Under the pieces are notes generated by a model. The model worked only from the letters and a program-made list of their open reading frames with translations. It did no database searches and was not told where the DNA came from. Positions 9,238-55,200 of a stretch of DNA of 64,000 nucleotides are shown piece after piece (positions within the stretch are counted from its first letter, which is position 1; each line of letters opens with the position of its first letter). The position numbers and the translations under genes were made by a program. The stretch is from Bacteroidales bacterium (lineage in GTDB: Bacteria; Bacteroidota; Bacteroidia; Bacteroidales; UBA932), in the NCBI GenBank assembly GCA_017400135.1, contig JAFPVJ010000017.1, forward strand, positions 62,001-126,000, read 5' to 3'.

Positions 9238-9272
9238 CGTGCAAATCCCGAAAAAAGCAATTATATTTGAAC

Positions 9273-12200
9273 ATGCGAAAGATCCTTCATACCCTGGCAG
9301 CCCTTTCGTTGCTGCTTCCCTTTGCCTGCAAACCCTCTCCCGACCGCTTCGACCTGGCCGAATTCCGCCATCCCTCAACGACGTACCGCACTATGTCGTT
9401 CTGGTCGCTCAACGATAGCCTCAGCGCGGACGAGATGCGCCGGCAGCTGGCCCTCTTCAAGGACGGTGGCTTCGGCGGCGCCTTTTTTCACAGCCGGCCG
9501 GGCTTGCTGACACCCTATCTTTCAGAGGAATGGTTCGACATGATGGAGGCGGGTGTGCGCGCTTCGCAGGACCTGGGGCTCGAGTCCTGGTTCTACGACG
9601 AAGACAAGTGGCCCAGCGGATTCGCCGGAGGCATCGTGCCCCGGCAGGATGACGCTTTCCGCGCCCGGACGCTGGTGCGCGTGCCTGTCGGGACTGCGAT
9701 CAGTCCGGAGGACAGCGTCTTGCTCGACGACGGGACGCATCTCTATGTGGCGCACGTCGACCCCATGGGCCAGCCCTGGTACAACGGCGCCTGCTGGGTG
9801 GACCTGATGAATCCGGAGGCCGTCAAGGCTTTCATCGAATGCACCTACAAGCCTTACGCAGAGCGCTTTGCGGGCTGCAAAGGGGTGATGGGCATCTTCT
9901 CCGACGAGCCCCAGGTGTCGCCCCGGCGCGATGTCACGGAGGCGGACGCCTTCATCCCGTATTCGCCCTGGATGGAGCCGGCGTTCCAGGAAAAATACGG
10001 CTATGAACTGAGACAGCACCTTCAGTCCCTGGTCGATACGGTAGGGGACTGGCGGTCCTTCCGCCTGCATTATTACCGGACGGTGGGCGAGTGTATGGAG
10101 AAGGCTTTCAGCCAGCAATTGGGCGACTATTGCGCCCAGGCCGGCCTGCTCTGGACCGGGCATTACAACGGCGAGGAGCTGCCGGTATCCAATATGTTCA
10201 ACCAGGGCAACCTGATGACGCAGTTCCGGCACATGCAAGTCCCGGGCGTGGATGCCCTGGGCCTGCGTTTCAAGGTGCTGCACAACGCCAAGGTAATGTC
10301 TTCGGTCGCCAATCAGTACGGCAAGCAGCGCCGCATCGTCGAGATCTTTGGCACGGCGGGCCACAACCTCTCCTTCGAGGACCGGATGTGGCTGACTGCC
10401 TGGCATACCATCAACGGCCTGAACCTTTTCTGCCCGCACCTCTCGCACTACAGTCTGAAGGGCATACGCAAATACGATTATCCGCCTTCGTTCAACTACC
10501 AGGAGCCTTATTGGCCGGACAATGCGCTCTTTGAGGATTACTCGGCGCGCCTGGCCTATTTTGCGACGGTGGGCAGGACGGTGGGGGAGGTGCTGGCCTT
10601 CTCGCCGCTCGAGTCCGATTACTTGGACCGGGATGTGGCGGAGGCCTCGCCCGAACCGGCGCGGGACCAGTTGCTGGAGGCCATCCTGCAGCAGTTGATG
10701 ACCCTCCATTTCAACGCGGACCTGGGTGACGAGCAGATCGCTTCGGAGATCGGTTCCGTGGAGAACGGCCTGCTCAGGATCGGGGAGATGAACTATCATA
10801 CCGTGATCCTGCCCAGCTTCCTGACGATACGTCCTTCGACGCTCAAACTATTGGAGGAGTTCGCCGCCCAGGGCGGCAACGTACTCGTCTGTGGGGGTTA
10901 TCCTGCATACGTGGATGGCGTGCCGGACGTGCTGGAGGGCCTGCGGGCCTGCAGCACGGAGGTCACGCTGGAGGATTTGCCCGCTTGCCTGGAGGCCCGT
11001 GCGAAGCGCGCTTTCCGCCTGGAAGGCCCCGGCGCCGAAAAGGTCTGGACTCATCTGCGCAAAGTGGACGGCGGCCGCACCCTGCAATTGTCCAACACCT
11101 CTCGGATGGAGTCCGTCCGTGTCCGGGGCGCCCTGGACCGGCCCGCGCGTCATCTTGCCCTGCTGAATCCCTTGAACGGGGAAGCCCTTTCCGTGCCGCT
11201 ATCGTCTGACGGTTCTTTTGAACTGGAACTGGCTCCGGCCCAGACCTGGGTGCTGCTGGATACGGACAAAGCCGTGCCCTTCGACGGGGAATACCGCCTC
11301 CCCGGCGAACAGACTCCCATACAGGCCCTCGCAGGCTGGACCTGCCGGCGCCTCGACCCGAACGCCCGGCCCCTGGACTTCGCCGAATGGTCCACGGACG
11401 GCGGCGCGAGCTGGAACGGCCCCGAGCCCGTGCTGGCCATCTATCACCGCTTCAACGACGGCGCGGCCCATTACGACGGGCCGATGATGCTGCGCTATAG
11501 CTTTGATGTACAGGAACTTCCGGCTCACTGCGACCTGGTCGTCGAGCAGCCTTGGATGTACAAGGCCATCACCCTCAACGGCCACGCGTTGCATTTTGGC
11601 GACGACTGGTACGTGGACCGCTATTTCCGGACCGCTGATGTCGCGCCCTACCTGCAGGCGGGAAGCAATGAGATCCAGCTTTCCCTGGATTTCGTCAATC
11701 CCATTCCAGACTCCATCGACCCCATCGCACGCTATGGCACGGAGATCGAGAACCTCTTCCTCGTCGGGGATTTCGGCGTCGATGCCGCCCTGGCCGGGGA
11801 ACAGCCGACCGAGACCTGGCGCAACCGCAATCCCATCCTCAATCCCAAGCCCCTGCCGGCGCGCTACGGGCAGACGTCGTTATGCCTGACCGCGGACCGG
11901 GATGCCCCGGAAGGCGATTTCACCCGCCAGGGTCATCCTTTCTATGCCGGGCGCATCTGTTGCACCGGTACCCTCAATCTGACCGCCAAAGAGGAAGGCG
12001 TGCGATACAAGATCGCCTTCCCAAAGGTCGAAGCCATCACCGTTCAAGTCAAGGTCAATGGGCAGACCCTCCCGACCGTCTTCTGCAGCCCGTGGGAGAC
12101 GGATGTCACCGATGTCCTGCAACCCGGCGAAAACGAAGTGGAATTGATTCTGACCGGCAGCCTGCGCAACCTTCTCGGCCCGCTCCACTGCGTGGGCGGC

Positions 12201-12392
12201 GAATTCGCGATGCTGGGCCCGGCCACCTTCACGGGGGCTGATTCCTGGCCCAACGCCGATCCTGGCGACAACGACTGGTACGATCTCCGCAAGACAGGTA
12301 AAACGCGCCTTTGGAGGGATGACTATTACTGCATTCCCTTTGGCCTGATGGAAAGCCCGGTCCTCGTGACGGAAACAATGAGTTTGCAATGA
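9273..12392 (+). CDS. Glycosyl hydrolase, GH106 (alpha-L-rhamnosidase)-like lipoprotein
   Basis: The ATG at 9273 starts a lipoprotein signal (LLLPFAC, Cys 19). The product is 1039 residues, the usual size for this group. The TIM-barrel begins with FWSLNDSLSADEMRRQ, then FKDGGFGGAFFHSRPG, a stretch holding WFYDEDKWPSG, and GHYNGEELPVS. A beta-sandwich typical of GH2/GH106 architecture occupies about 700-1000 (YRLPGE, then MYKAITLNGH and VKVNGQTL). Family knowledge: the well studied GH106 enzymes remove L-rhamnose from rhamnogalacturonans. The relation here is by overall motif layout, so the substrate is uncertain. The stop overlaps the start of the BNR-4 gene by 4 bases (ATGA), indicating an operon. 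Confidence 0.75.
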   Translation: MRKILHTLAALSLLLPFACKPSPDRFDLAEFRHPSTTYRTMSFWSLNDSLSADEMRRQLALFKDGGFGGAFFHSRPGLLTPYLSEEWFDMMEAGVRASQDLGLESWFYDEDKWPSGFAGGIVPRQDDAFRARTLVRVPVGTAISPEDSVLLDDGTHLYVAHVDPMGQPWYNGACWVDLMNPEAVKAFIECTYKPYAERFAGCKGVMGIFSDEPQVSPRRDVTEADAFIPYSPWMEPAFQEKYGYELRQHLQSLVDTVGDWRSFRLHYYRTVGECMEKAFSQQLGDYCAQAGLLWTGHYNGEELPVSNMFNQGNLMTQFRHMQVPGVDALGLRFKVLHNAKVMSSVANQYGKQRRIVEIFGTAGHNLSFEDRMWLTAWHTINGLNLFCPHLSHYSLKGIRKYDYPPSFNYQEPYWPDNALFEDYSARLAYFATVGRTVGEVLAFSPLESDYLDRDVAEASPEPARDQLLEAILQQLMTLHFNADLGDEQIASEIGSVENGLLRIGEMNYHTVILPSFLTIRPSTLKLLEEFAAQGGNVLVCGGYPAYVDGVPDVLEGLRACSTEVTLEDLPACLEARAKRAFRLEGPGAEKVWTHLRKVDGGRTLQLSNTSRMESVRVRGALDRPARHLALLNPLNGEALSVPLSSDGSFELELAPAQTWVLLDTDKAVPFDGEYRLPGEQTPIQALAGWTCRRLDPNARPLDFAEWSTDGGASWNGPEPVLAIYHRFNDGAAHYDGPMMLRYSFDVQELPAHCDLVVEQPWMYKAITLNGHALHFGDDWYVDRYFRTADVAPYLQAGSNEIQLSLDFVNPIPDSIDPIARYGTEIENLFLVGDFGVDAALAGEQPTETWRNRNPILNPKPLPARYGQTSLCLTADRDAPEGDFTRQGHPFYAGRICCTGTLNLTAKEEGVRYKIAFPKVEAITVQVKVNGQTLPTVFCSPWETDVTDVLQPGENEVELILTGSLRNLLGPLHCVGGEFAMLGPATFTGADSWPNADPGDNDWYDLRKTGKTRLWRDDYYCIPFGLMESPVLVTETMSLQ

Positions 12393-16365: not shown

Positions 16366-18891
16366 TTAGAAGTCAAAGCCGATGGAAGCGTAAGCGGTGA
16401 TGCCGGTGATGTCGCACCACTGGACGGCGAAGCGCAGCGGCCCCACCATCGTCTGGCGGGCGTATTCTCCGCCGAAGGCATAGATCGGCACCCCCATGAA
16501 CATGTATCGGAATTTGTAATCACGGAAGTAACAGCCGGCCCGGGCCGTGACATAATTCTTGCGGGCGAAACAATACCTCAGGTCCAGCTGGGGCACCGAG
16601 GAGAAGCGGGAAGTCCACCTGAATCCGTTGGGGAAGCCTAAGAATGGGATCTGGCGCTCGACATAACGGTTCGGCATGAAACCGCCCAAGCCGATGCTGT
16701 GCCGGATATTCATAGCCTCGTGATCGGTGGAGTCCCATCCGAAATACAAACTGGGCTGGATGGTGAAATGCTGCCCCAGCGAGAAGGCTGCCTGAAGGCT
16801 TGCGAGGACGCTGCCGTAAGGATTGACGGGTTGCATCCGGATCAGGTCCTTGGTGTCGATATCGGGGCCATTGCCATCCATTTCGTCGACATATCCATCC
16901 GACTCATCTGAACGCGTCAGGATGGGGGAAAGCTTCGCGTAGGATTCCTCACCGTTGCCGCCTTCCACTTCATAGAACCATTTCTTGAGCGCACCCTTGA
17001 AAACATAACGGCCGTCAAGGGAGAAACGGATGCCCCGGGTGGGGAAGTATCCGTCATCAAAGGTGTCGAACTTAAAGGTCGCAAAGCCGGAGAGCCAGTA
17101 ACTCCTCCAATCCCAGCCCAGCCGGGACTGGGCGTATTCCAGGTAATTTTCGTAAGGGTCCATCTCCGCCGTCACGCCGGCCCGGAAGGAGCCGAAGCGC
17201 AGCCTGGCGTCTTCAATGTACGCGTCCAGGGCCGTGGAGAGGAGTCTCTCTTCCGTGCTGGCCATATAACCGTACGTCGTGTTCATGTAGCTGGTGCGGG
17301 AGGCGACACCGACGACGGGGCCTTTCATGGGCTTGAAGGCGAAGTCAAGGGTCAGGGCCGGGTTTGTACCCAGCTTGAGATCCGTGGTGAAACGCGGGCC
17401 GTAGAGGCGCCGGGTCCCCAGTCCGTAGTGCAGGGCTACGGCCACGGTCTCGTCGGTGTCGGCGCGCAGGCCGACCGCGAAATCGTTCGTCTGCCCCTTT
17501 TGGCAGTCGAAGACCAGCGTGTAGGGTTCTCCGCGGCCTCTCAGGTGGTAGGTCACCGATTCGAAGGCGTTGGTGCCATAGATCTTGTTGAGCAGATTTT
17601 CGATGATTTCCCGGTCGAACTCCTGCGTGTTGGGATAGTCCCGGCTGTGAAGGATGATCTGACGGTCCTTGTCGCTGATGCCCTCGAATTGGATCGCATC
17701 CACGCGCACTTTGTTCTGGGCCAGGTTGACGGCGGGGGCGGGGTGGCTGACGGGCGGCTCCTGGCAGTCCTTGAAGAGGGCCGCAATGGACTCGAACAGT
17801 TCTTTCTGTCCCAGGGCGTTCCGGTAGCCTTGGTCGATGATGTCATCCACGCTCTTGTCATCGAAGGACAGCATGTTGTAGCCTTTCAGCTCATGGTGCA
17901 CGTCCATGTCGAGCATCTCGCGGGCCGGACCGGCGGCTTCCTTGGACAGGAGGGTGATGGTCTGGAAGAGGAAGTCCACCGGAGAGTTGAGCTCGTCCAG
18001 TTGGCGCGGGACGGACATTTCCGAACCGATGACGATGTCGGCGCCCATTTCCTTGGCCAGGTCCACCGGGAAATTGTTGCGCATGCCGCCGTCCAGCAAG
18101 ACCTCGGCGTTCTCACGCACGGCCCTGAAATAGAAGGGGATGGCCATCGTGGAACGCAGGGCGTCGTTGAGGTTGCCCGAGGTCCAATATTTGGGTGCCA
18201 TGGCATACAGGTCGGTGGCAACGCAGGCATAGGGGATGGGGAGTTCGGAGAAACTCAAGCTGTCCTGGTAACCCACGCTGATGGAACTGAGCATGTTGCG
18301 CACGTTCAGGCCGTAGAGGTAACCGTCCGGCATGCCGAGGCCCATCTTGTTCATGGCGTCCTGCATCATGTCAGCCGATTTGTGCCCGGCTTCTTCGGAC
18401 ATGATGTCGACGACCTTCTCTTTCCTGAGACGGTCCGCCAGGTCCTCGTCGTCGTAGTGGTGAGGAACGCGGATGATGAAACGCTCGCGGTATTTCTTCA
18501 ACTTATAGGGCAGGAAATCGTTCGGGATGTCATCTGACATCATGACGGGCCATTGGATGTCCCTGACCAGGGAGTCCAGCTGGTCATGCTTGTAGCCCAG
18601 GGCATACAATCCGCCGACGAGACCGCCCATGCTGGTACCCGTGACGATGTCCACGGGGATCCCCAGTTCTTCCATGTACTTGATGACTCCCAGGTGCGCC
18701 AGGCCGCGGGCGCCGCCGCCGGCCAGCACGAGGCCCACCGTAGGACGGTACCGCCGGATCGAATCCATCCGGGCACGGACCTTGGCGAAGGCGATGGAAT
18801 CGGCCTCAGGATGGGCGCTGGGGAGGATTTGGGCGTTGAGGGCAAAAGAGAGGGTACAAGCAAGGACAATGGCCGAGAGGATCCGTTTCAT
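16366..18891 (-). CDS. Patatin-like phospholipase with BamA-type barrel (PlpD-like)
   Basis: The 841-residue product has a Sec signal (cut near NAQ, residue 21) and an N-terminal patatin domain. The oxyanion motif is GGGARG (58-63), the nucleophile elbow GTSMG has Ser 87, and the catalytic Asp is in DGG (Asp 267). A single POTRA-like region is near 390-470 (VRVDAIQFEGISDKDRQIIL). The rest is a 16-strand BamA/Omp85-type barrel ending in an aromatic residue (GFDF). This is the plan of type Vd autotransporters and Bacteroidota homologues, which place a lipase at the cell surface or periplasm. The barrel is complete. It is first in a two-gene operon with the MscS channel. Confidence 0.9.
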   Translation of the reverse strand: MKRILSAIVLACTLSFALNAQILPSAHPEADSIAFAKVRARMDSIRRYRPTVGLVLAGGGARGLAHLGVIKYMEELGIPVDIVTGTSMGGLVGGLYALGYKHDQLDSLVRDIQWPVMMSDDIPNDFLPYKLKKYRERFIIRVPHHYDDEDLADRLRKEKVVDIMSEEAGHKSADMMQDAMNKMGLGMPDGYLYGLNVRNMLSSISVGYQDSLSFSELPIPYACVATDLYAMAPKYWTSGNLNDALRSTMAIPFYFRAVRENAEVLLDGGMRNNFPVDLAKEMGADIVIGSEMSVPRQLDELNSPVDFLFQTITLLSKEAAGPAREMLDMDVHHELKGYNMLSFDDKSVDDIIDQGYRNALGQKELFESIAALFKDCQEPPVSHPAPAVNLAQNKVRVDAIQFEGISDKDRQIILHSRDYPNTQEFDREIIENLLNKIYGTNAFESVTYHLRGRGEPYTLVFDCQKGQTNDFAVGLRADTDETVAVALHYGLGTRRLYGPRFTTDLKLGTNPALTLDFAFKPMKGPVVGVASRTSYMNTTYGYMASTEERLLSTALDAYIEDARLRFGSFRAGVTAEMDPYENYLEYAQSRLGWDWRSYWLSGFATFKFDTFDDGYFPTRGIRFSLDGRYVFKGALKKWFYEVEGGNGEESYAKLSPILTRSDESDGYVDEMDGNGPDIDTKDLIRMQPVNPYGSVLASLQAAFSLGQHFTIQPSLYFGWDSTDHEAMNIRHSIGLGGFMPNRYVERQIPFLGFPNGFRWTSRFSSVPQLDLRYCFARKNYVTARAGCYFRDYKFRYMFMGVPIYAFGGEYARQTMVGPLRFAVQWCDITGITAYASIGFDF

Positions 18892-18927
18892 TTAATGTGG
18901 TCTAGCTTTGCGTTATTTATCGGACTT

Positions 18928-18964
18928 CAAAGATACGATTATTTTTTCTTTATTGTTATCTTTA
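18928..18964. promoter_or_regulatory. Divergent -7 boxes between patatin and GH28 genes
   Basis: On the minus strand TATCTTTG (18935-18928) is an exact TAnnTTTG box 37 bases before the patatin start. On the plus strand TATCTTTA (18957-18964) is a 7/8 match 17 bases before the GH28 start. Neither has a clear -33 TTTG. Together they account for the 90-base AT-rich gap, which holds no other feature I can see. Confidence 0.45.
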
Positions 18965-18981
18965 CCCCATCAAGACCCTGT

Positions 18982-20385
18982 ATGATGACCAGACACCGCA
19001 TTTTTAGCACGGCGTTCCTCCTGACAGCCGCCTTCCTTACCTTCTTTCCGCTTCGTGCGGGGGATTATGAAACCCTGTACAAGGACCTTCCGGTAGCACT
19101 GCCGGAGCCCTCGTTGCCCTCCATCCCCGCCTTCACCCTGACGCTGACGGATTTCGGCGCCGTGGGTGACGGCATTACGGACAATACGGCCGCCTTCGAA
19201 AAAGCGATTTCCGCGCTGTCGAAAAAGGGAGGCGGGCATCTGGTCGTGCCGGCTGGCATCTTTCTGACCGGCCCCATCGTCCTGAAGGACCGGACCGACC
19301 TTCATCTGGAGCGGGGCGCCCTGATCCTGCTCAGTCCGGACAAGACGGCCCACATCCGCAAGGGTAAAGTCCAGCCCGGGATCAGCGCCAGCAATCGTTC
19401 GGACGTGAGCATCACCGGCGACGGCATCATCGACGGCAATGGCGAATGGTGGCGCGGCGTCAAGCGTGGCAAGGTCAGCAATGTCGAATGGGGGGATTTC
19501 CGCCGGATGGGCGGTACGATGACGGAAGACGGGCAGATTTGGTATCCCTTTGATTTGAAGGTGTTTCCCAATGTTGCCGTAACGGCGCCGGAGCAGGAGA
19601 AAATGCGCACGCACCTCGTACGCTTCACGGATTGCGAGCGGGTGCTGGTCCAGGGCGTCACCCTCCAGCATGCGCCCAAATTCCACCTCGTGCCGCAGCG
19701 TTGCCGGCAGGTCGTCATCGACGGCGTGACGGTCCGCTGCCCATGGAATGCCCAGAACGGGGACGGTATCGACCTGATGAACAGCCAGGACGTCCTGGTG
19801 ACCCGGTGCCGGGTGGACGTGGGGGACGACGGCATCTGCCTGAAGGGCGGCGTCGGTGAAGCCGGCGTGCAGGACGGTCCCTGCGCACGCATCCTGGTGA
19901 CGGAAAATATCGTCTTCCGGGCTCACGGGGGCTTTGTGATCGGCTCCGACTTCTCCGGAGGAATGGAGGATATCGTAGTGTGCCGCAATACTTTCTCCGG
20001 CACGGATACCGGACTGCGTTTCAAGAGTGCGTCGGGGCGGGGAGGAAAGTGCCGGGCCATCCGTATTTCCGACATCATCATGACTGACATCCGGGACGCG
20101 GCGGTGTCTTTCCGGACTTCCTACGTCGACATGCCGGTGGGGCGCACGGAAGCGGTAGTGCGCCAGACTTCCGGTTTCGTGCCGGAATTCAGCGACATCC
20201 AGATCAGCCGGGTGACCTGCCGGGACACAAGGATCGCGGTGGCCGCGAAGGGCACCCTCGAAATGGTCCACGACATCGTTCTTTCCGACTGCGTTTTCTT
20301 TTATTCGGAGACGGCGATGCGCTTGGACGACCCGGCGTCGATCCATTTTGAGAACGTTCGTTTCGAGACTTTTGAAAAAAACTGA
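18982..20385 (+). CDS. Polygalacturonase, glycoside hydrolase family 28
   Basis: The ATG at 18982 gives a 467-residue protein with a signal peptide (hydrophobic 8-24). The pectate-lyase-type start VTDFGAVGDGITDNTAAF pattern appears near 56-72 and is followed by right-handed beta-helix repeats. Catalytic motifs of GH28 are visible: NGDGID (Asp 261), GDDG (Asp 282 and Asp 283) and AHGG (His 315), with a GLRFKS segment where the family has R-x-K. It should hydrolyse galacturonan or a rhamnogalacturonan backbone, and a helix insertion near 160-195 may set specificity. It heads a tightly spaced five-gene operon that ends at the terminator near 24.4 kb. Confidence 0.88.
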   Translation: MMTRHRIFSTAFLLTAAFLTFFPLRAGDYETLYKDLPVALPEPSLPSIPAFTLTLTDFGAVGDGITDNTAAFEKAISALSKKGGGHLVVPAGIFLTGPIVLKDRTDLHLERGALILLSPDKTAHIRKGKVQPGISASNRSDVSITGDGIIDGNGEWWRGVKRGKVSNVEWGDFRRMGGTMTEDGQIWYPFDLKVFPNVAVTAPEQEKMRTHLVRFTDCERVLVQGVTLQHAPKFHLVPQRCRQVVIDGVTVRCPWNAQNGDGIDLMNSQDVLVTRCRVDVGDDGICLKGGVGEAGVQDGPCARILVTENIVFRAHGGFVIGSDFSGGMEDIVVCRNTFSGTDTGLRFKSASGRGGKCRAIRISDIIMTDIRDAAVSFRTSYVDMPVGRTEAVVRQTSGFVPEFSDIQISRVTCRDTRIAVAAKGTLEMVHDIVLSDCVFFYSETAMRLDDPASIHFENVRFETFEKN

Positions 20386-20389
20386 AACC

Positions 20390-21424
20390 ATGATAGATGA
20401 GATCCTCTCCTTCAACAGGGACTTTGTTGCCCGGAAGGCGTACGAACCGTTTGTGACTGATAAATATCCTTCGAAGAAACTGGCCGTCCTGACCTGCATG
20501 GACACCCGTCTGACCGAGCTGCTGCCCCAGGCGCTGGGGCTGCGCAACGGTGATGCCAAGATCATCCGGAACGCCGGCGGTGGGGTGCTCTTCGAGGCGG
20601 ATTCCGCCATACGTTCCCTGTTGGTGGCCATTTATGAGCTGGGTGTGGAGGAAGTGATGGTCGTCCATCATTCCGGCTGCGGCGCCTGCCACATGAGCTA
20701 TGCGGAATTCAAGCCGCATTTCCTGGAGCGGGGGATTCCAGAGGAGGTGCTCGCTGCCTGGGAGAAGTGGGGGATCGCTGAATGGCTGGAGGGTTTCCAC
20801 GATACGGAGGCTTCCGTGCGCAGGACGGTCGAGGCGGTCCGTTCCCATTCGCTGATGCCGAAGGACATCGTCGTCCGAGGCTTCATCATCGACTCCGTGA
20901 CGGGTGCCCTGACAGAGGTGGATTGTCCGGAGAATGGCTGCCGTTGCGGGTGCGGAGGAGAGCACGAAGAAGGATGTGGTTGTGGCGGGCATGACGGGGA
21001 GGCGTGCGGCTGCGGTGGCGGAGAAGGTCATCACTGCCACCACGGCGAGGGGGAGGAATGTCATCACGGTGATTCCGAAGGCGGGCACTGCCATCACGGC
21101 GGCGGATGCCGTCGCCACGGCGCCCAGGCTGCCGCGCGGGTGGACGCCATGTCCTGGGCCTTCGACCGGGTCAGCGTAGCGATACGCCCCTATCTGGGCG
21201 GAGCGGACGACCCGGCTGCCCGGGCTGAGGCGCGGAAGGCCCTGGAGCCCTTCCAGGATGAAATAGCCGCCCTCGATTACTACCAGCGCTCCGGCCTCTG
21301 GCAGCAGGATTACGAGGCCGACGAAGCCGGCCGCCTGCCCGCGGACATCCGCCGCAGCGTCCTCTCACAGGACGGCCTTTATAACCTGCTTGAAGAAATC
21401 GGATTTGTTTCTAAAACCAATTAA
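20390..21424 (+). CDS. Beta-carbonic anhydrase with Cys/His-rich metal-binding insert and extra C-terminal domain
   Basis: I start at the ATG 4 bases after the GH28 stop. Residues 1-178 are a small-type beta-carbonic anhydrase: zinc ligands Cys 36, His 94 and Cys 97 (CMDTR and HHSGCG), with the Asp 38/Arg 40 dyad, giving reversible CO2 hydration. No signal peptide, so cytoplasmic. Residues 179-243 then hold 12 Cys and 12 His among Gly and Glu, first as CGCGG blocks and then as HCHHG blocks. Residues 250-344 are an extra helical domain I do not recognise. Beta-CAs of this clade normally end near residue 180. The insert is in frame in GC-normal DNA, so it is not a sequencing slip. Metal storage or delivery, or metal-controlled activity, is inference. 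Confidence 0.88.
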   Translation: MIDEILSFNRDFVARKAYEPFVTDKYPSKKLAVLTCMDTRLTELLPQALGLRNGDAKIIRNAGGGVLFEADSAIRSLLVAIYELGVEEVMVVHHSGCGACHMSYAEFKPHFLERGIPEEVLAAWEKWGIAEWLEGFHDTEASVRRTVEAVRSHSLMPKDIVVRGFIIDSVTGALTEVDCPENGCRCGCGGEHEEGCGCGGHDGEACGCGGGEGHHCHHGEGEECHHGDSEGGHCHHGGGCRRHGAQAAARVDAMSWAFDRVSVAIRPYLGGADDPAARAEARKALEPFQDEIAALDYYQRSGLWQQDYEADEAGRLPADIRRSVLSQDGLYNLLEEIGFVSKTN

Positions 21425-21443
21425 ATAATAAACATTGAAACCC

Positions 21444-22847
21444 ATGATCAGTAGAAGAACATTCGTCAAGGCCGCCGGGACATCCCTTGCGGCTCTGGCA
21501 GTCACTCCCCAAACGATCCTGGCCGCTTCCGCCAAGAACCGGAAATCCGCCCAGGGCGCCTCGGACAAGGTCAACGTCGCCTTCATCGGCATCGGACAGA
21601 AAGGGGAAGAAGAGGCGACGTACGCCTGGAAGACCGGTCTGTGCAACGTGTTGGCCCTGTGCGACGTCAACATGGGGCATCCCTGGACGCAGAAGGTCAT
21701 GGGGATGTTCCCCGAAGCCAAGCGCTATACGGACTTCAGGAAGTTGTTTGACGAGATGGCGAGCCAGTTGGACGCTGTCTTCGTCTGCGTGCCGGACTTC
21801 GCCCATTTCGCCATCGCGATGCGCGCCCTCAAGGAAGGCTTGCACGTCTACTGCGAAAAGCCCCTGTGCCGCACCTTCCACGAGTGCCAGCTGCTGCTCG
21901 AAGAATCCCGGCTCCATCCGGAACTCGTGACCCAGCTGGGTAACCAGGGTCATTCGGGCCCGGCCTATTTCCAGTTCAAGTCCTGGACCGAGGCGGGTAT
22001 CATCAAGAACATCACCCGGATCGACGCCTATATGAACAACTGGCGTCGCTGGCATCCTTACGACGTAAACATCAAGAAGTTCCCCGATCCCGACCCGATG
22101 CCGGAGACGATGCAGTGGGATATCTGGCAGATGCAGACGATGTATCACGACTACAGCGAGAAGTTCGACCACGGCAACTGGCGCGGCTGGTATGACTTCG
22201 GCTGCGGCGCCCTCGGCGACTGGGGCTGTCACATTCTTGACAACTGCCATCAGTTCCTCGAACTGGGCCTGCCGACGGAAGTCAAGATGCTCCGGGCGGA
22301 CGGTCACAACGACTATTTCTTCCCCAAGGCGTCCACCATCGAGTTCAAGTTCCCGCGCCGCGGCAACAAGCCGGCGGTGACGCTGACCTGGTACGACGGG
22401 CAGGAGAATCCCGCGCCCAAGCCGGAAGGCGACTGGTTCGTCCCGCACAACGAGGACAAAGGCGTCGGTAAGTTCCTTTATGGCGACGAGCTGACTTTCT
22501 CCGGTGGCGCGCACCGCACCCCGCTCGTCATCATCCCCAAGGAGGCGCAGATGGAACTGGAGGCCAAGGGCGTGCTGCCCGAGACGCCGCCCATGCCGGA
22601 GGACTTCCTGTTCAACCACCACAGGAACTTCCTCAACGCCGTCCTGGGTAAGGAGAAATCCCATTCCCCGTTCGAAGTTGCGGTCCCGCTGACACAGGTG
22701 CTCTGCCTCGGCATCATCGCGCAGAAACTCAACACCGGTTTCCACTTCGACAGGAACACCCACGAGATCCTCGACAACCCGTTTGCCAATTCCCTGCTGA
22801 CCGGCATTCCGCCGCGCAAGGGTTGGGAAGACTACTACAAGCTATAA
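21444..22847 (+). CDS. Gfo/Idh/MocA-family oxidoreductase with Tat signal
   Basis: The ATG at 21444 starts a twin-arginine signal (SRRTFVKAAG, Arg 4-Arg 5) followed by a hydrophobic core, so the folded, cofactor-loaded enzyme is exported. The Rossmann domain follows (VNVAFIGIGQKGEEE; CDVNMG), with the family signature EKPLCR near residue 145 carrying the catalytic Lys, then a large alpha/beta domain. It is 467 residues, the common length of the exported Bacteroidota subgroup. Such enzymes oxidise or reduce sugar hydroxyls with tightly bound NAD(P). Next to DUF1080 and a TIM-barrel isomerase it fits the 3-keto-glycoside pathway, in which C3 of a glycoside is oxidised before cleavage. Substrate unknown. 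Confidence 0.88.
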   Translation: MISRRTFVKAAGTSLAALAVTPQTILAASAKNRKSAQGASDKVNVAFIGIGQKGEEEATYAWKTGLCNVLALCDVNMGHPWTQKVMGMFPEAKRYTDFRKLFDEMASQLDAVFVCVPDFAHFAIAMRALKEGLHVYCEKPLCRTFHECQLLLEESRLHPELVTQLGNQGHSGPAYFQFKSWTEAGIIKNITRIDAYMNNWRRWHPYDVNIKKFPDPDPMPETMQWDIWQMQTMYHDYSEKFDHGNWRGWYDFGCGALGDWGCHILDNCHQFLELGLPTEVKMLRADGHNDYFFPKASTIEFKFPRRGNKPAVTLTWYDGQENPAPKPEGDWFVPHNEDKGVGKFLYGDELTFSGGAHRTPLVIIPKEAQMELEAKGVLPETPPMPEDFLFNHHRNFLNAVLGKEKSHSPFEVAVPLTQVLCLGIIAQKLNTGFHFDRNTHEILDNPFANSLLTGIPPRKGWEDYYKL

Positions 22848-22852
22848 GGCCT

Positions 22853-23566
22853 ATGAGAAGAATACTTGGAATGGCGGCCGCCTGTATGATGGCGGTCGCT
22901 TGCTCCGGCGGTTGGCAGCCCCTCTTCGACGGCCAGTCGCTGGAGGGCTGGATCGGCGTGGACGGGCAGGAGCTCCCGGCCAGCTATTGGAGCGTCGTGG
23001 ACGGCGTCATCGTTTCCCACCCCAAGTTGGCGGAGCAGCCCGCGGAAATAGGGGATATCGAGGCGCCGGCCGACGATACCCGGGATCTGATGACCCGCTC
23101 GGTTTACGGCAACTTCAAACTGAAGGCGCAGTTCCGCCTCGAGGAAGGTTCCAACGGCGGCATCAAGTATTTCATCAATCCGGGACGTTTCCGGGGCCCG
23201 TCGATCGGGTTTGAATACCAGATCATCGATGACGCTACCTTCGGGAAACTGCATTTCAAGATCAACAATGTCCAGACGACCGCTTCCCTCTACGACCTGC
23301 TTTCCGCCAACAAGACGAAAGCCAATTTCCGGCCTTACGAGTGGAACGATGCGATGATCGTGGTCGACGGCGGCCGGGTGGAGCACTGGCTCAACGGCGT
23401 CAAGGTGCTGGAGATCGACCGTTTTTCGGAGAGTTTCGACCGGCTGGTCGTCAACAGCAAGTTCTGCAACGACGAGGGCTTCGGCAAACTGGACTCGGGG
23501 CACATTCTCCTCCAGGACCATGGCTGTACGGTGTATTATCGCAATATCATGATAAAGGAGATTTGA
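22853..23566 (+). CDS. DUF1080 (3-keto-disaccharide hydrolase domain) lipoprotein
   Basis: I start at the ATG 5 bases after the previous stop because it gives a lipoprotein signal (MAVAC, Cys 17). The 237-residue product is one concanavalin-like beta-sandwich of the DUF1080 type: WQPLFDGQSLEGW near the N-terminus, then YGNFKLKAQFRLEEGSNGGI and EYQIIDD, then WNDAMIVVDGGRVEHWLNG. This family is now linked to cleavage of 3-keto-glycosides by beta-elimination and hydration. It sits between the oxidoreductase and the isomerase-like gene, the usual trio. Membrane anchoring places it on the same side as the Tat-exported oxidoreductase. Confidence 0.88.
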   Translation: MRRILGMAAACMMAVACSGGWQPLFDGQSLEGWIGVDGQELPASYWSVVDGVIVSHPKLAEQPAEIGDIEAPADDTRDLMTRSVYGNFKLKAQFRLEEGSNGGIKYFINPGRFRGPSIGFEYQIIDDATFGKLHFKINNVQTTASLYDLLSANKTKANFRPYEWNDAMIVVDGGRVEHWLNGVKVLEIDRFSESFDRLVVNSKFCNDEGFGKLDSGHILLQDHGCTVYYRNIMIKEI

Positions 23567-23570
23567 CGGT

Positions 23571-24395
23571 ATGAAAAAGTTGATTACCCTGGCATTATCC
23601 TTCCTGTGTCTGTCCTGTGCGGGTCCGAAAGATCCGCCCGCGCAGACCGGTCACAAATCCGACGATTACCGTCTCGGCGTGGCGGGTTATACCTTCCGGA
23701 AGTTTACCATCGACCAGACTTTGGCGCAACTTCAAAGTCTCGGCATCAAGTATCTGTCCGTCAAGGACTTCTGGCTTCCGCTGGATGCCACTGTCGAAGA
23801 GATGGACGCCTTCAAGGCAAAGTGTGCGTCTTACGAGGTCGACCCCTATATCCTGGGCCCCATCTATATGAGCACGCCCGAGCAGGTCGAGCAGGCTTTT
23901 GCCTACGCGCAGCGCTATGGCGCCGATTTGTTTATCGGCGTGCCTTCCTACGACGTGCTGGACAAGGTGGTCGCCAAGGTCAAGGAGACCGGCATCCGGG
24001 TGGCCGTCCACACGCACGGTCCCGACCTGCCCGATCTTTTCCCGGACATCCGGGTGGTCGTGGAGAAGGTGGGCGATCCTTCGCTCGGCATCGGCTGCTG
24101 CATGGACCTGGCCCATTCGTACCGCTACGGCGAAGATCCCGCCCAGGACATCCTGACGTATGCGAAATGGATATGGGACATCCACATCAAGGATGTCACC
24201 GAACCGTCGAAGGCCGGCGTCGCAAAAGAGATGGGACGCGGCGGGATGGATATTCCCGCAATCGTGGAGAGCCTCAGGAAAATCGGCTACCAGGGCGTGA
24301 TCTCCATCGAGTACGAAGGCTCGGGAGAGAATCCTCTTCCTGCCGTCGCCGAAACGGCAGGATATCTGCGCGGCGTGATGGATGCGCTGAAATAA
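23571..24395 (+). CDS. Sugar phosphate isomerase/epimerase-like TIM-barrel lipoprotein
   Basis: This 274-residue protein carries a lipoprotein signal (CLSC, Cys 16) and then a xylose-isomerase-like/AP-endonuclease-2 TIM barrel: LGVAGYTF, YLSVKDFWLP, VAVHTHGPD, CMDLAHSY, DIHIKDVTEP and VISIEYEG. The last strands bear the Asp, His and Glu that usually bind a divalent metal. Being exported, it is unlikely to act on phosphosugars. In its operon with an exported Gfo/Idh/MocA enzyme and DUF1080, a keto-sugar isomerase or epimerase step is the better reading. It ends the operon, 3 bases before a strong terminator. Confidence 0.82.
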   Translation: MKKLITLALSFLCLSCAGPKDPPAQTGHKSDDYRLGVAGYTFRKFTIDQTLAQLQSLGIKYLSVKDFWLPLDATVEEMDAFKAKCASYEVDPYILGPIYMSTPEQVEQAFAYAQRYGADLFIGVPSYDVLDKVVAKVKETGIRVAVHTHGPDLPDLFPDIRVVVEKVGDPSLGIGCCMDLAHSYRYGEDPAQDILTYAKWIWDIHIKDVTEPSKAGVAKEMGRGGMDIPAIVESLRKIGYQGVISIEYEGSGENPLPAVAETAGYLRGVMDALK

Positions 24396-24429: not shown

Positions 24430-24501
24430 TACTGGGTAGGAGAATCGAACTCCTATTGCAAGATTGAGAATCTTGAGTACTAACCGTTATACGAACCCAG
24501 C
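24430..24501 (-). tRNA. tRNA-Glu (CTC)
   Basis: Read on the minus strand, the 72-base cloverleaf has acceptor GCTGGGT with ACCCAGT (G1 opposite U72, a wobble), a D-arm with GGTTAG, an anticodon stem CAAGA/TCTTG around TTCTCAA (anticodon CTC), a T-arm AGGAG-TTCGATT-CTCCT, and discriminator A. CCA is not encoded. It lies 48 bases downstream of the trigger factor gene on the same strand. The G-U end pair is slightly odd. Confidence 0.93.
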
Positions 24502-52271: not shown

Positions 52272-55200
52272 ATGAGAAAATCAATTAAGTGGATCATCGC
52301 GGTGACCTTCGCTGCGTTCGCCGTGATCGGTTGTGCCAAGCAGGGCGACCTCGAAAAGGTCGTCTCGCGGGTCGACAACATCGAAAACCGTGTCGGCGTT
52401 CTCGAAGAAGCCGTCAAACAGCTCAATGAGACGGACGTTCCCGGTCTGCGGGATCTGGTCCGGGCTATCCAGAACAACATTACCGTCACCTCCGTCGTGG
52501 AGACCGAGGACGGTTACACGATCAATTTCTCCGACGGCACCACCGCCGTTCTCCGCAATGGCAAGAATGGCCAGAACGGCCGTGACGGTGTCGACGGTGT
52601 CGACGGCACCAATGGTAAGGACGGCGTCGACGGTACGAACGGTACGGATGGACAGACTCCCGTGATCGGCATCACCCTGGTGGACGGTGTCTATGTCTGG
52701 ACCGTCAACGGTGAAATCCTGAAGGATGACAGCGGCAAGCCCATTCCCGTTACGGGCAATGACGGCAAGGATGGCGTAGACGGTACCAACGGCACGAACG
52801 GCACGGACGGTATCACCCCTCTGTTCGGCATCCTGGACGGCCACTGGGTCGTTTCCTACGACAACGGTGACACCTGGAAGACCCTCGGTCTGACCAGCGA
52901 CACGGACTATTCCGCCTATATCGATCCTGACAAGGAGACCGACGACTACATCGTCCTCGTGGTCGGTGCGACCGAGGTCCAGATCCCCAAGGAGAAGGCC
53001 TTCACCCTGACCTTCACGACCATTGAGAACAACGGTGTCAACGCCGGCGAGACCGCTGCGTTCCCTTATACCATTGCGGGCGTCAACGCCAGCGACGAGA
53101 CTGATGTCGACGTGATCGGCATCATCGGCGACTGGACGGCTGAGGTTGTTCCGACCGACAACGCTTCCGGTGTCCTGAACGTGACCGCCACCGAGAACGG
53201 TACCGCCAAGGTTACCGTCTATGCGGCTAACCACAAGGGCAAGGCCGACATCCGCACCCTCAAGTTCGAGGGCGGTGTCCTCGAGGCCATCATCGAGACC
53301 CACGACATTTCCTGGGAAGGCGGTGAGCTTGACCTCCTCGTCAGGACCAACGTCGCCTATGACGTCGTCGTTCCCGCTGCCGCACAGGAGTGGATCAGCG
53401 TCGCTCCGGCCACCCGTGTCCGCGTGGATTCCCTCGTGATCGCCGTCGCGAAGAACGAGACCGGTTCCTATCGTCAGGCGACCCTGCAGGTCGTTGACAG
53501 CAAGGGTACCTCCGTCAAGGATATCGAAATCCTCCAGTATGCCAATCCTGAGGCTGCCACGGATCTCGCTTCTGTCGCGGCTCTCCCGGATGACAAGGCC
53601 GTCGCCGTCAATCAGGTGACTGTCGTCGCCGCCTCCAAGGTCAGCACCATCGTCACCGACGGTGAGGCCTTCATGTATGTGACCAACTACACCGGAACGC
53701 CCGGCACCGTCATCGACGTGACCGGTACCAAGAAGACCGACGATTTCGAGCTCGCATTCGTTGAATCTTCCGACGTGAAAGTCAACGCCGAGGCCGAGCC
53801 GGTCGAGGTGGACAAGAAAGCGAATTATTACTACTATGGTTACGGTGCCAATGGCTTCACCTTCTTCTACACGGCCAACAACGGCGTCGTCAGCGAGAAG
53901 GACGGCGTGTACTATGTCACTGCGTATGAGGAGCCCCAGCAGTTCGTCATCGAGGATCCGACCCAGGATCTGAGCTCCCTGGTCGGCAAGTTCGTCGCCA
54001 TGAGCGGCTGGGTCAAGGTCGTTGATTATGAGAGAGATGTCAAGGAAGACATCATCACGGTCCTGACCGACATCCACGAGATCGTATTCACCGAGGAGAC
54101 CGGTTGGAAGCCGTATTATGCGGGAATGACTTCCGATGATGAAGATTATCCCGAAGTGATCGGAAACGAGGTTTCCAATCCCACTGAGGATAGCTATTAT
54201 GAGCTTATCGTGATTGACGCGGCAGAGGCCGCCGCCACCTACGAAAGCATGGATGAAATGGTCGCCACCGTTGCCTACAACGCTTCCGACGATCTTCTCT
54301 GGTATCTTTCCCGCTATGCCGCCTTTGGCTATGACTTTGTGTTTAACTTCTATACCCACAACGAATCTGCCGAGGATACTCTCGAAGAACTCGATTACGG
54401 AGCATACTATCTCCTGGCTGTGGGCTTGGATGCTGAAGGACGCATCAGCGGCAAGTATGCGGTCACGACCTTCGAGAAGAAGGATCCGTCCGTCTTCGCG
54501 AATTATGAGGACTTCCTGGGTGAGTGGATCCTGGCTGGCAACACAATCGAGATTGCGGCGAAAGAGAATGGAAAGACCTACTCCATCACCGGTCTTCCCG
54601 GCTATGACGGAAACAACTATCTTGCCGTCGAGGCCGTTTACGATGCCGAAAAAGGAAAGCTCCTGCTTTATGAACAGGCACTTAAGGATTACACCAACAG
54701 CAACTATGGCGCGTGCAAGCGTATCTTCCAGGGTGTCTTCACTTATTCTGGAACCGATTATGGCTTCTTCTGGTTCAACAGCGAAGATTACGACGACGAG
54801 CCACAGGTCATCCTGACGGGTTCTTTGTTGAATACCGGTGAAGTCAATCTTGCCGCCGGATCTTGCCCTTACGGCAAATTCACGGGATTCCGTTATGCCT
54901 GGGTCATCGTTAATGAGAGCAGTCCGTATTACAGGAACGGTGGTGCCCAGAGCACGGTTGCTCTGCCCAATCTTCTGACCCGGCCGCAGGTTGATCTGGA
55001 AGCCTACAACAAATGGCTCGGAAACTGGACGGTAGGTACTGATTCCTGGACGATTGAGAAGGCGGAGGAGGGTAAGACCTTCACCGTGACCGGCATCTGC
55101 GGAACCGATATTCCTTATGAGGCCCGCTTCAATTCATCCTCCAACGAATTCGAGCTTTATGAGCAAGAAACGGATGTTGTTGTCGAGGTCAGTGTCGGAG

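What the first reader, a model, noticed from the sequence alone, without database searches (positions are those of the whole stretch)
20921..21121. Carbonic anhydrase with an in-frame 12-Cys/12-His insert
Residues 179-243 hold 12 Cys and 12 His, organised as CGCGG blocks and then HCHHG blocks, joined to a complete beta-carbonic anhydrase and followed by an unknown helical domain. The small beta-CA clade normally ends where the insert begins. The protein could store or deliver zinc, buffer toxic metals, or switch the CA by metal state. The Cys-rich then His-rich order could give sites for different metals.
Basis: partly seen in the sequence, partly recalled or inferred. Interest (0 to 1): 0.75.

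Follow-up and report, generated by a model that had tools for sequence, protein, structure and literature searches.

The report
Carbonic anhydrase with metal-rich linker
One unnamed bacterium has joined an ordinary carbonic anhydrase to a small domain of unknown function through a 65-residue linker packed with cysteine and histidine that probably holds metal ions; the linker was seen only here, while the small domain turns out to be attached to many unrelated enzymes in its relatives.

Summary
One intact 344-aa frame (20390-21424, +) encodes a complete beta-carbonic anhydrase (residues 1-178), 65 residues with 12 Cys and 12 His (20924-21118), and a further domain. That domain is Pfam DUF4298, distantly related to streptococcal sHIP, which binds GHHPHG peptides. 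The Cys/His stretch is thus a linker at a fusion joint. It was found on no other carbonic anhydrase: the 54 unfused relatives read end at the joint, and two other carbonic anhydrase-DUF4298 fusions in the genus, apparently of separate origin, lack it. Its composition resembles the metal-binding tail of SlyD, so metal binding is likely, but with one copy conservation cannot be tested, and no metal regulator site was found. I favour a tethered metal reservoir for the enzyme; a filler linker and a metal sink are close rivals. The wider surprise is DUF4298: mostly one copy per genome, yet joined to about 14 partner families in one bacterial family, at least two of them in both orders. The linker holds GHHCHHG, close to the sHIP ligand, so recognition in cis is a testable if unlikely idea.

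The parts
20390..20923 (+). beta-carbonic anhydrase domain, residues 1-178, with C36, D38, R40, H94, C97 (Zn-ligand roles recalled for beta-CAs)
   Evidence: Pfam Pro_CA 2.2e-13; PDB 6y04 2.5e-29 and 1g5c 9.6e-26; residues kept in 57 of 57 rows
20924..21025 (+). Cys-rich half of the linker, residues 179-212 (8 Cys, 2 His), three CGCGG units 10 residues apart
21026..21118 (+). His-rich half of the linker, residues 213-243 (10 His, 4 Cys), with GHHCHHG at 213-219 (21026-21046)
21119..21424 (+). DUF4298 (sHIP-related) domain, residues 244-344, and stop codon
   Evidence: Pfam PF14131 1.4e-11 at residues 283-336; 13 invariant columns among 16 rows, this one included; profile hits PDB 4pz1/4mer at 2.2e-6 and 3.1e-6
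18903..18910 (+). TAGCTTTG, possible -7 box (TAnnTTTG, consensus recalled) ahead of the GH28 gene; likely start of the transcript that carries the CA gene (inference)
18925..20385 (+). upstream GH28 family gene (exact start not settled), ends 4 nt before the CA start codon
   Evidence: Pfam PF00295 5.7e-29
21444..22847 (+). downstream GFO/IDH/MocA oxidoreductase gene, 19 nt after the CA-DUF4298 stop
   Evidence: Pfam PF01408 2.8e-15

Best explanation
A standard beta-carbonic anhydrase gene was joined in frame, in this lineage, to a DUF4298 domain that travels among genes in this bacterial family, and the joint is a flexible-looking 65-residue Cys/His/Gly/Glu linker of the kind seen on SlyD-type metal-binding tails. 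Shown here: the anatomy, the intact enzyme motif, the identity of the third domain, and the absence of the linker in the sets searched. Suggested by the trees: the fusion is recent and separate from two other such fusions. Inferred: that the linker binds several Zn(II) (or Ni, Co, Cu) ions, and that this tethered pool, beside an enzyme that needs zinc and brought close to other copies by a DUF4298 domain whose relative sHIP forms tetramers, buffers or hands over metal to keep the carbonic anhydrase loaded when zinc is scarce.
For: 12 C + 12 H of 65, in repeated CGCGG and CHHG motifs, with codons of the repeated residues mostly diverged at offsets 8 and 10. CA motif residues intact. Similar segments sit on other proteins with a metal link: the FKBP (SlyD-like) protein of a genus member, G910, ends in a Cys/His tail, and a Lachnospiraceae protein, L133, has a Cys/His linker between a part that I read as NifX-like and a part that I read as FKBP-like (by eye, no family scan; 59% identity over 40 residues, sequence). 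SlyD tails bind Ni(II) and Zn(II) (E. coli up to 7 Ni per protein; H. pylori 2.4 Ni or 3.3 Zn; PMC7055735, passages seen). sHIP forms tetramers (PMC4742562, abstract).
Against: Singleton: no second linker-bearing CA, so selection on it cannot be measured between species. The two other CA-DUF4298 fusions (L052, L151) have no such linker, so the fusion does not need it. No metal regulator site found; the gene lies in what looks like a glycan-use operon. The codon tests are weak and point both ways (offset 18). No structure could be predicted (tool off).
Confidence: 0.4

Rival explanations
1. The linker is a low-complexity spacer that grew at a recent fusion joint; it may bind metal in a tube but has no selected role.
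For: Seen on a CA in one genome only; the other two fusions do without it. Gly and Glu make up 32 of 65 residues. At offset 18 codons are rather alike (8 of 18 differ), as after a DNA duplication. Its third-position GC differs from its flanks.
Against: C+H density far above anything else in the window; motif numbers rarely reached by shuffles (40 and 55 of 20,000); at offsets 8 and 10 repeated residues are kept while codons differ.
Confidence: 0.25
2. General metal sink: the linker protects the cell from excess metal, or stores metal for other proteins, and the carbonic anhydrase is only a carrier.
For: Composition suits Zn, Cu, Ni and Cd (general knowledge of thiolate and imidazole ligands); SlyD is thought to contribute to nickel storage (PMC7055735, passages); the G910 SlyD-like protein finds no match in this genome, and the four FKBP_C frames that it does have show no Cys/His tail, at most 4 C+H in 40 residues.
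Against: The gene sits in a glycan-type operon with no metal gene among its scanned neighbours; the genome is 88.6% complete, and one search had no positive control in this genome, so the absence of SlyD is weak.
Confidence: 0.2
3. Clamp in cis: the DUF4298 domain, like its relative sHIP, grips the His-rich linker (GHHCHHG beside the sHIP ligand GHHPHG), and metal binding to the linker releases or tightens the grip, switching the shape or assembly of the carbonic anhydrase.
For: A 16-row DUF4298 profile matches sHIP at 2.2e-6 and 3.1e-6, next hit 0.055; sHIP binds GHHPHG with Kd 1.9 uM at a site that includes Ala41-Ala56 (PMC4742562: abstract, passages and section 17 seen); sHIP Phe46 and Trp52 fall on the DUF4298 columns that hold Tyr298 and Trp304 here (my reading by eye of the alignment).
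Against: The window protein alone does not list sHIP at E 0.1. Two other named contact residues, Glu51 and Arg54, are not matched, and sHIP has a gap where DUF4298 has DYEADEAG. No other DUF4298 protein read shows such a linker: the richest other frame, L105 (13 C+H in 40), has it before the likely start codon (judged by eye). In sHIP the Pro of GHHPHG is said to matter and is Cys here.
Confidence: 0.1
4. Assembly or frameshift artefact.
For: One unconfirmed assembly in 28 contigs.
Against: One open frame through two recognised domains; no DNA repeat that would invite mis-assembly; two other CA-DUF4298 fusions exist.
Confidence: 0.03

Closest known systems
SlyD (FKBP-type prolyl isomerase with Cys/His metal-binding tail)
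   Same: Gly/Glu/Cys/His segment of similar make-up; E. coli and H. pylori SlyD tails bind Ni(II) and Zn(II) (PMC7055735, passages)
   Different: Here the segment is an internal linker on a carbonic anhydrase; no FKBP domain in this protein
Small beta-class carbonic anhydrases (Pfam Pro_CA; PDB 6y04, 1g5c, 3las)
   Same: Complete domain and motif
   Different: The relatives read end near residue 178; this one continues for 166 residues
DUF4298 (PF14131) and sHIP of Streptococcus pyogenes (PDB 4mer, 4pz1)
   Same: C-terminal domain matches DUF4298 above cut-off and the DUF4298 profile matches sHIP
   Different: sHIP is a separate, secreted protein (PMC4742562 abstract) with a gap in place of the acidic DYEADEAG stretch
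His-rich metal chaperones: COG0523, UreG and HypB with His stretches
   Same: A His-rich stretch added to some members of a family and not to others; about 40% of COG0523 proteins have one (PMC2770081, passages)
   Different: Those are GTPases of metal-centre assembly; here the stretch is on the metal-using enzyme itself

Membership tests
beta-carbonic anhydrase | Pro_CA profile over its curated cut-off | tested here: met
   51.2 bits, cut-off 25.7
beta-carbonic anhydrase | motifs CxDxR and HxxC (Zn ligands, recalled) | tested here: met
   C36, D38, R40, H94, C97, identical in 57 of 57 rows
beta-carbonic anhydrase | CO2 hydration activity | not testable with these tools
   needs enzyme assay; CS2 and COS hydrolases are among the sequence matches (3ten, 3vqj)
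DUF4298 (PF14131) | profile over curated cut-off and shared residues | tested here: met
   44.7 bits, cut-off 27; 13 invariant columns among 16 chosen rows, window row included
sHIP | sequence relation | tested here: met
   by family profile: 2.2e-6 and 3.1e-6, next hit 0.055; not seen with the single window protein at E 0.1
sHIP | GHHPHG-binding residues | tested here: inconclusive
   Phe46 and Trp52 matched by Tyr and Trp; Glu51 and Arg54 not (read by eye)
sHIP | helix-loop-helix tetramer | not testable with these tools
   structure prediction switched off
SlyD | FKBP domain | tested here: not met
   no FKBP_C among Pfam matches
SlyD | Cys/His-rich segment as a C-terminal tail | tested here: not met
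   composition alike (12 C + 12 H in 65; G910 FKBP tail) but internal, followed by DUF4298
metallothionein | match to a metallothionein family model | tested here: not met
   no such family at E 0.001 in Pfam or NCBIfam

The most novel reading that the evidence does not exclude
DUF4298 is a nomadic recognition module that binds His-rich peptides or acts as a portable oligomerising tag, and in this genome it has been joined to a carbonic anhydrase through a built-in ligand (GHHCHHG) whose metal occupancy gates the module: a zinc-sensing carbonic anhydrase in one chain.
Probability: 0.08. Interest if true: 0.85.

Novelty: new variant of a known kind. Interest (0 to 1): 0.48.

Why it matters
A metal reservoir built into the enzyme that uses the metal would be a simple solution to metal loading, and the fusion can be tested with one purified protein. 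More broadly, the work gives a first lead on DUF4298, a domain whose name and accession are in none of 5.39 million open-licence papers: its profile reaches sHIP, it mostly occurs once per genome, and it has been joined to some 14 unrelated partner families within one bacterial family, to carbonic anhydrase apparently three separate times, and to at least two partners in both orders. That pattern suggests a portable function that works on or through whatever it is attached to.

Tried and rejected
Insert inside the carbonic anhydrase: rejected, it starts where 54 of 54 unfused relatives read end. Among CA hits without a locus in hand, one search lists three whose alignment runs past residue 190 (G396, G481, G499), each through one or more stop codons; the loci held for two of them (L053, L059) end at the joint. 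Shared descent of the three CA-DUF4298 fusions: not supported; both trees need three changes and 0% of 200 bootstrap trees join them (the DUF4298 tree is poorly resolved, and one gain with many losses cannot be strictly excluded). A second copy or source of the linker in the genome: none (next hit E 0.86; the HCHH DNA pattern occurs at two other places, with no Cys/His-rich frame among the two richest frames printed for each). Linker-like segments in 296 genomes of the phylum: three weak hits (E 0.0017-0.005); I printed only the two richest frames of each locus and judged them chance. Alignments that reach into the linker from G403, G517, G860 and G981 were read and show no such linker. Conserved neighbourhood: of 43 window frames, only the CA frame was found in 12 of the 14 CA loci compared (13 close relatives and G498); in the other two (G562, G563) one further window gene, 9267-12392, has a match about 5 kb from the CA gene, 8-11 kb away in the window; the immediate neighbours were found in none. 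Phage and defence libraries, four proteins scanned: the CA part and a peroxiredoxin partner match phrogs of unknown function (4.5e-21, 2.2e-17), the rest is weak; viral contigs gave no relative. Plasmids: 33 records match, none over 80% of the query; the 20 listed rows cover the CA part only. Neighbour clustering of DUF4298 loci gave mostly shadow frames of partners and closely related genomes; I drew nothing from it. Paper searches: one search was swamped by the word ship; listings for a His-rich or chaperoned carbonic anhydrase showed no relevant title or abstract, in the open-licence library only.

Full report
Observation. The frame from the ATG at 20390 to the stop at 21422-21424 encodes 344 residues without interruption. 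Residues 179-243 (20924-21118) hold 12 Cys and 12 His of 65, with 22 Gly and 10 Glu. In all six frames of the window the next richest stop-free 65-residue stretch has 13 Cys+His. The first 34 residues hold 8 Cys and 2 His, the last 31 hold 4 Cys and 10 His; three CGCG and three CHH motifs were reached by 40 and 55 of 20,000 residue shuffles. CGCGG units start exactly 10 residues apart. No tandem DNA repeat is listed there and no exact direct repeat exceeds 8 bases. Identical residues use different codons in 17 of 20 pairs at offset 8 and 20 of 25 at offset 10 (1.9% and 4.1% of 5000 synonymous shuffles as high), but in only 8 of 18 at offset 18 (10.4% as low) (one search gave 3.9% for offset 10). 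So the Cys half looks like protein-level repeats without DNA memory, while the His half may keep a trace of an old duplication. The offsets were chosen because they gave over 35% residue identity, so these fractions are not corrected for that choice. Third-position GC is 0.60 in the insert, 0.76 before and 0.75 after it.

The carbonic anhydrase. Pfam Pro_CA matches residues 32-153 at 51.2 bits (cut-off 25.7); the best solved relatives are 6y04 (2.5e-29) and 1g5c (9.6e-26). C36, D38, R40, H94 and C97 are identical in 57 of 57 aligned CA rows. These rows are the loci in hand with an aligned length over 150; partial copies L028 and L029 and duplicate loci were left out, and CA hits for which no locus was made are not covered. 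Of the 57, 54 are unfused and end between 1 residue before and 16 after position 178.

The third domain. The 'unknown helical domain' is DUF4298 (PF14131; residues 283-336, 44.7 bits, cut-off 27). An alignment of 16 chosen members (A1) has 13 invariant columns. [quoted passage not shown] the next hit is at 0.055. The window protein alone does not list sHIP at E 0.1. sHIP forms tetramers of helix-loop-helix motifs and binds the histidine-rich repeats of its host target; the single motif GHHPHG binds with Kd 1.9 uM in a pocket formed by the start of helix 1 of one chain and residues 41-56 of the other (PMC4742562: abstract, passages and section 17 seen). In the alignment sHIP Phe46 and Trp52 fall on the conserved Tyr and Trp columns (Tyr298 and Trp304 here), while Glu51 and Arg54 have no match (read by eye). 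Neither DUF4298 nor PF14131 is in any of the 5.39 million papers searched.

Relatives. In 400 genomes drawn from the genus, searched with residues 171-344, 115 have a match at 1e-4; one of these (G910) is not DUF4298 but the Cys/His tail of an FKBP protein. No other match longer than the CA part appears in 398 relatives at 1e-90 or in 393 genomes of the order. The 84,980-species scan with residues 171-344, which finds close relatives only and may leave out the window's own record, gave 4 loci, none on a carbonic anhydrase. I read every DUF4298 frame of 250 aa or more listed (rechecked against the list). CA-DUF4298 fusions are three: the window, G498 (L052) and G983 (L151), the last two without a Cys/His linker. 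In the CA tree (57 rows) and the DUF4298 tree (99 rows, few columns, bootstrap not settled) the three need three changes, with 0% of 200 bootstrap trees giving one. The nearest CA in the tree is the unfused L031 (G489; 92/67 support), and the nearest by identity are about 80%.

A wandering domain. Among 99 distinct DUF4298 frames I count 46 with a partner backed by homology: 39 segments in clusters of two or more (13 putative lipoproteins, 9 nucleoside deoxyribosyltransferase-like, 4 GIY-YIG, 4 peroxiredoxin, 3 CA, 2 membrane, 2 alpha/beta hydrolase, 2 glycosyltransferase) and 7 single cases with a family match (Fic, SDR, A1S_2505, AlkZ-related, TSCPD, and two GNAT). That is 14 partner families. 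The names lipoprotein and membrane protein are by eye only (no family match), and the deoxyribosyltransferase name rests on weak matches (phrogs 0.0037; DUF4406 0.046) and on reading. Family matches were run on one or a few members of each cluster, not on all. The peroxiredoxin and the deoxyribosyltransferase-like partner occur on either side of DUF4298 (L118 and L125; L099 and L126, L108); GNAT does so too, but the two GNATs (L128, L174) did not cluster, so they may be different enzymes. The share 46 of 99 is too high as an estimate, because I fetched long frames by preference. In one search, 7 of 115 genomes have two matches and the rest one, with the Pfam profile, 1 of 51. DUF4298 is accessory: 51 of 299 genomes of the family. 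G524 carries a separate DUF4298 gene facing its CA gene.

The linker elsewhere. The own genome has no second copy (next hit E 0.86). In 296 genomes of the phylum only three weak hits appear, judged chance from the two richest frames of each locus. Two analogues came up: the FKBP (SlyD-like) protein of G910 ends in a Cys/His tail, and a Lachnospiraceae protein (L133) has a Cys/His linker between a part I read as NifX-like and a part I read as FKBP-like (by eye). The G910 protein finds no match in the window's genome (no positive control there), and the four FKBP_C frames of that genome have at most 4 C+H in any 40 residues; the genome is 88.6% complete. Among other DUF4298 frames, six besides the window's have 7 or more C+H in 40 residues; the richest, L105 (13), has them before the likely start codon (judged by eye; L078, L129, L170, L174 and L179 likewise lie upstream of the domain and were not checked for a start).

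Context and control. The CA gene starts 4 nt after the stop of a GH28 gene and is followed after 19 nt by a GFO/IDH/MocA oxidoreductase, then a 3-keto-disaccharide hydrolase and an AP_endonuc_2 TIM-barrel gene. The only + strand TAnnTTTG box (Bacteroidota -7 consensus, recalled) between 11.5 and 25.5 kb is at 18903, ahead of GH28. No inverted repeat of 8 bases or more lies in 18860-19010, 20340-20420 or 21380-21480. So the gene is probably expressed with a glycan-use operon, with no sign of zinc control. The immediate neighbours are not kept in 14 CA loci compared; one more distant window gene (9267-12392) has a match near the CA gene in G562 and G563.

Mechanism. I commit to a tethered metal pool: the linker binds several Zn-like ions and helps keep the CA loaded (confidence 0.4). 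SlyD shows that such segments bind Ni and Zn (PMC7055735, passages). His stretches occur in some members of metallochaperone families and not in others, which fits a sporadic add-on (PMC2770081, passages). Shown: anatomy and distribution. Inferred: metal binding, transfer, benefit. Rivals: filler (0.25), metal sink (0.2), clamp in cis with DUF4298 (0.1), artefact (0.03).

Verdict. A real, intact and so far unique domain joint; a new variant of a known kind (a Cys/His metal-binding segment added to a metal protein). The less expected result is the domain after it.

Noticed in passing
L094, L096, L099-L104, L106-L109, L111-L113, L118, L120, L121, L124-L126, L128, L159, L174-L177, L181 and others: DUF4298 behaves as a wandering domain: about 14 partner families in one bacterial family, at least two of them in both domain orders, mostly one copy per genome.
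   Followed up: partly
window 21119-21421 and PDB 4mer/4pz1: A DUF4298 profile reaches sHIP, a protein that binds His-rich peptides; the conserved DUF4298 Tyr and Trp fall in the sHIP peptide site.
   Followed up: partly
L133 3593-4600 (+): A Lachnospiraceae protein with a Cys/His-rich linker between a part that looks NifX-like and a part that looks FKBP/SlyD-like.
   Followed up: no
L172 1996-2913 (-), genome G910: FKBP (SlyD-like) protein with a Cys/His-rich C-terminal tail in the same genus; no match to it in the window's genome.
   Followed up: partly
L194 8113-8712 (+) and 8729-9268 (-), genome G524: Separate carbonic anhydrase and DUF4298 frames face each other with almost no gap.
   Followed up: no
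window 18925-24395: GH28, carbonic anhydrase, GFO/IDH/MocA oxidoreductase, 3-keto-disaccharide hydrolase and TIM-barrel genes in one direction: looks like a glycoside operon with a carbonic anhydrase in it.
   Followed up: partly
window 52557-52810: Short tandem repeats (9 and 27 bases) inside a 1118-aa frame, perhaps a collagen-like or other repeat protein.
   Followed up: no
window, whole: TAnnTTTG boxes occur 28 times against 9.8 expected from shuffles.
   Followed up: no
L179 1991-4057 (-), L127 2403-3371 (-): Other long DUF4298 frames whose extra part has no confirmed partner; L127 looks like a truncated DUF4298 running into a downstream gene.
   Followed up: no
window 24430-24501 (-): A tRNA gene (Rfam RF00005, 59.1 bits) beside the end of the operon.
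   Followed up: no
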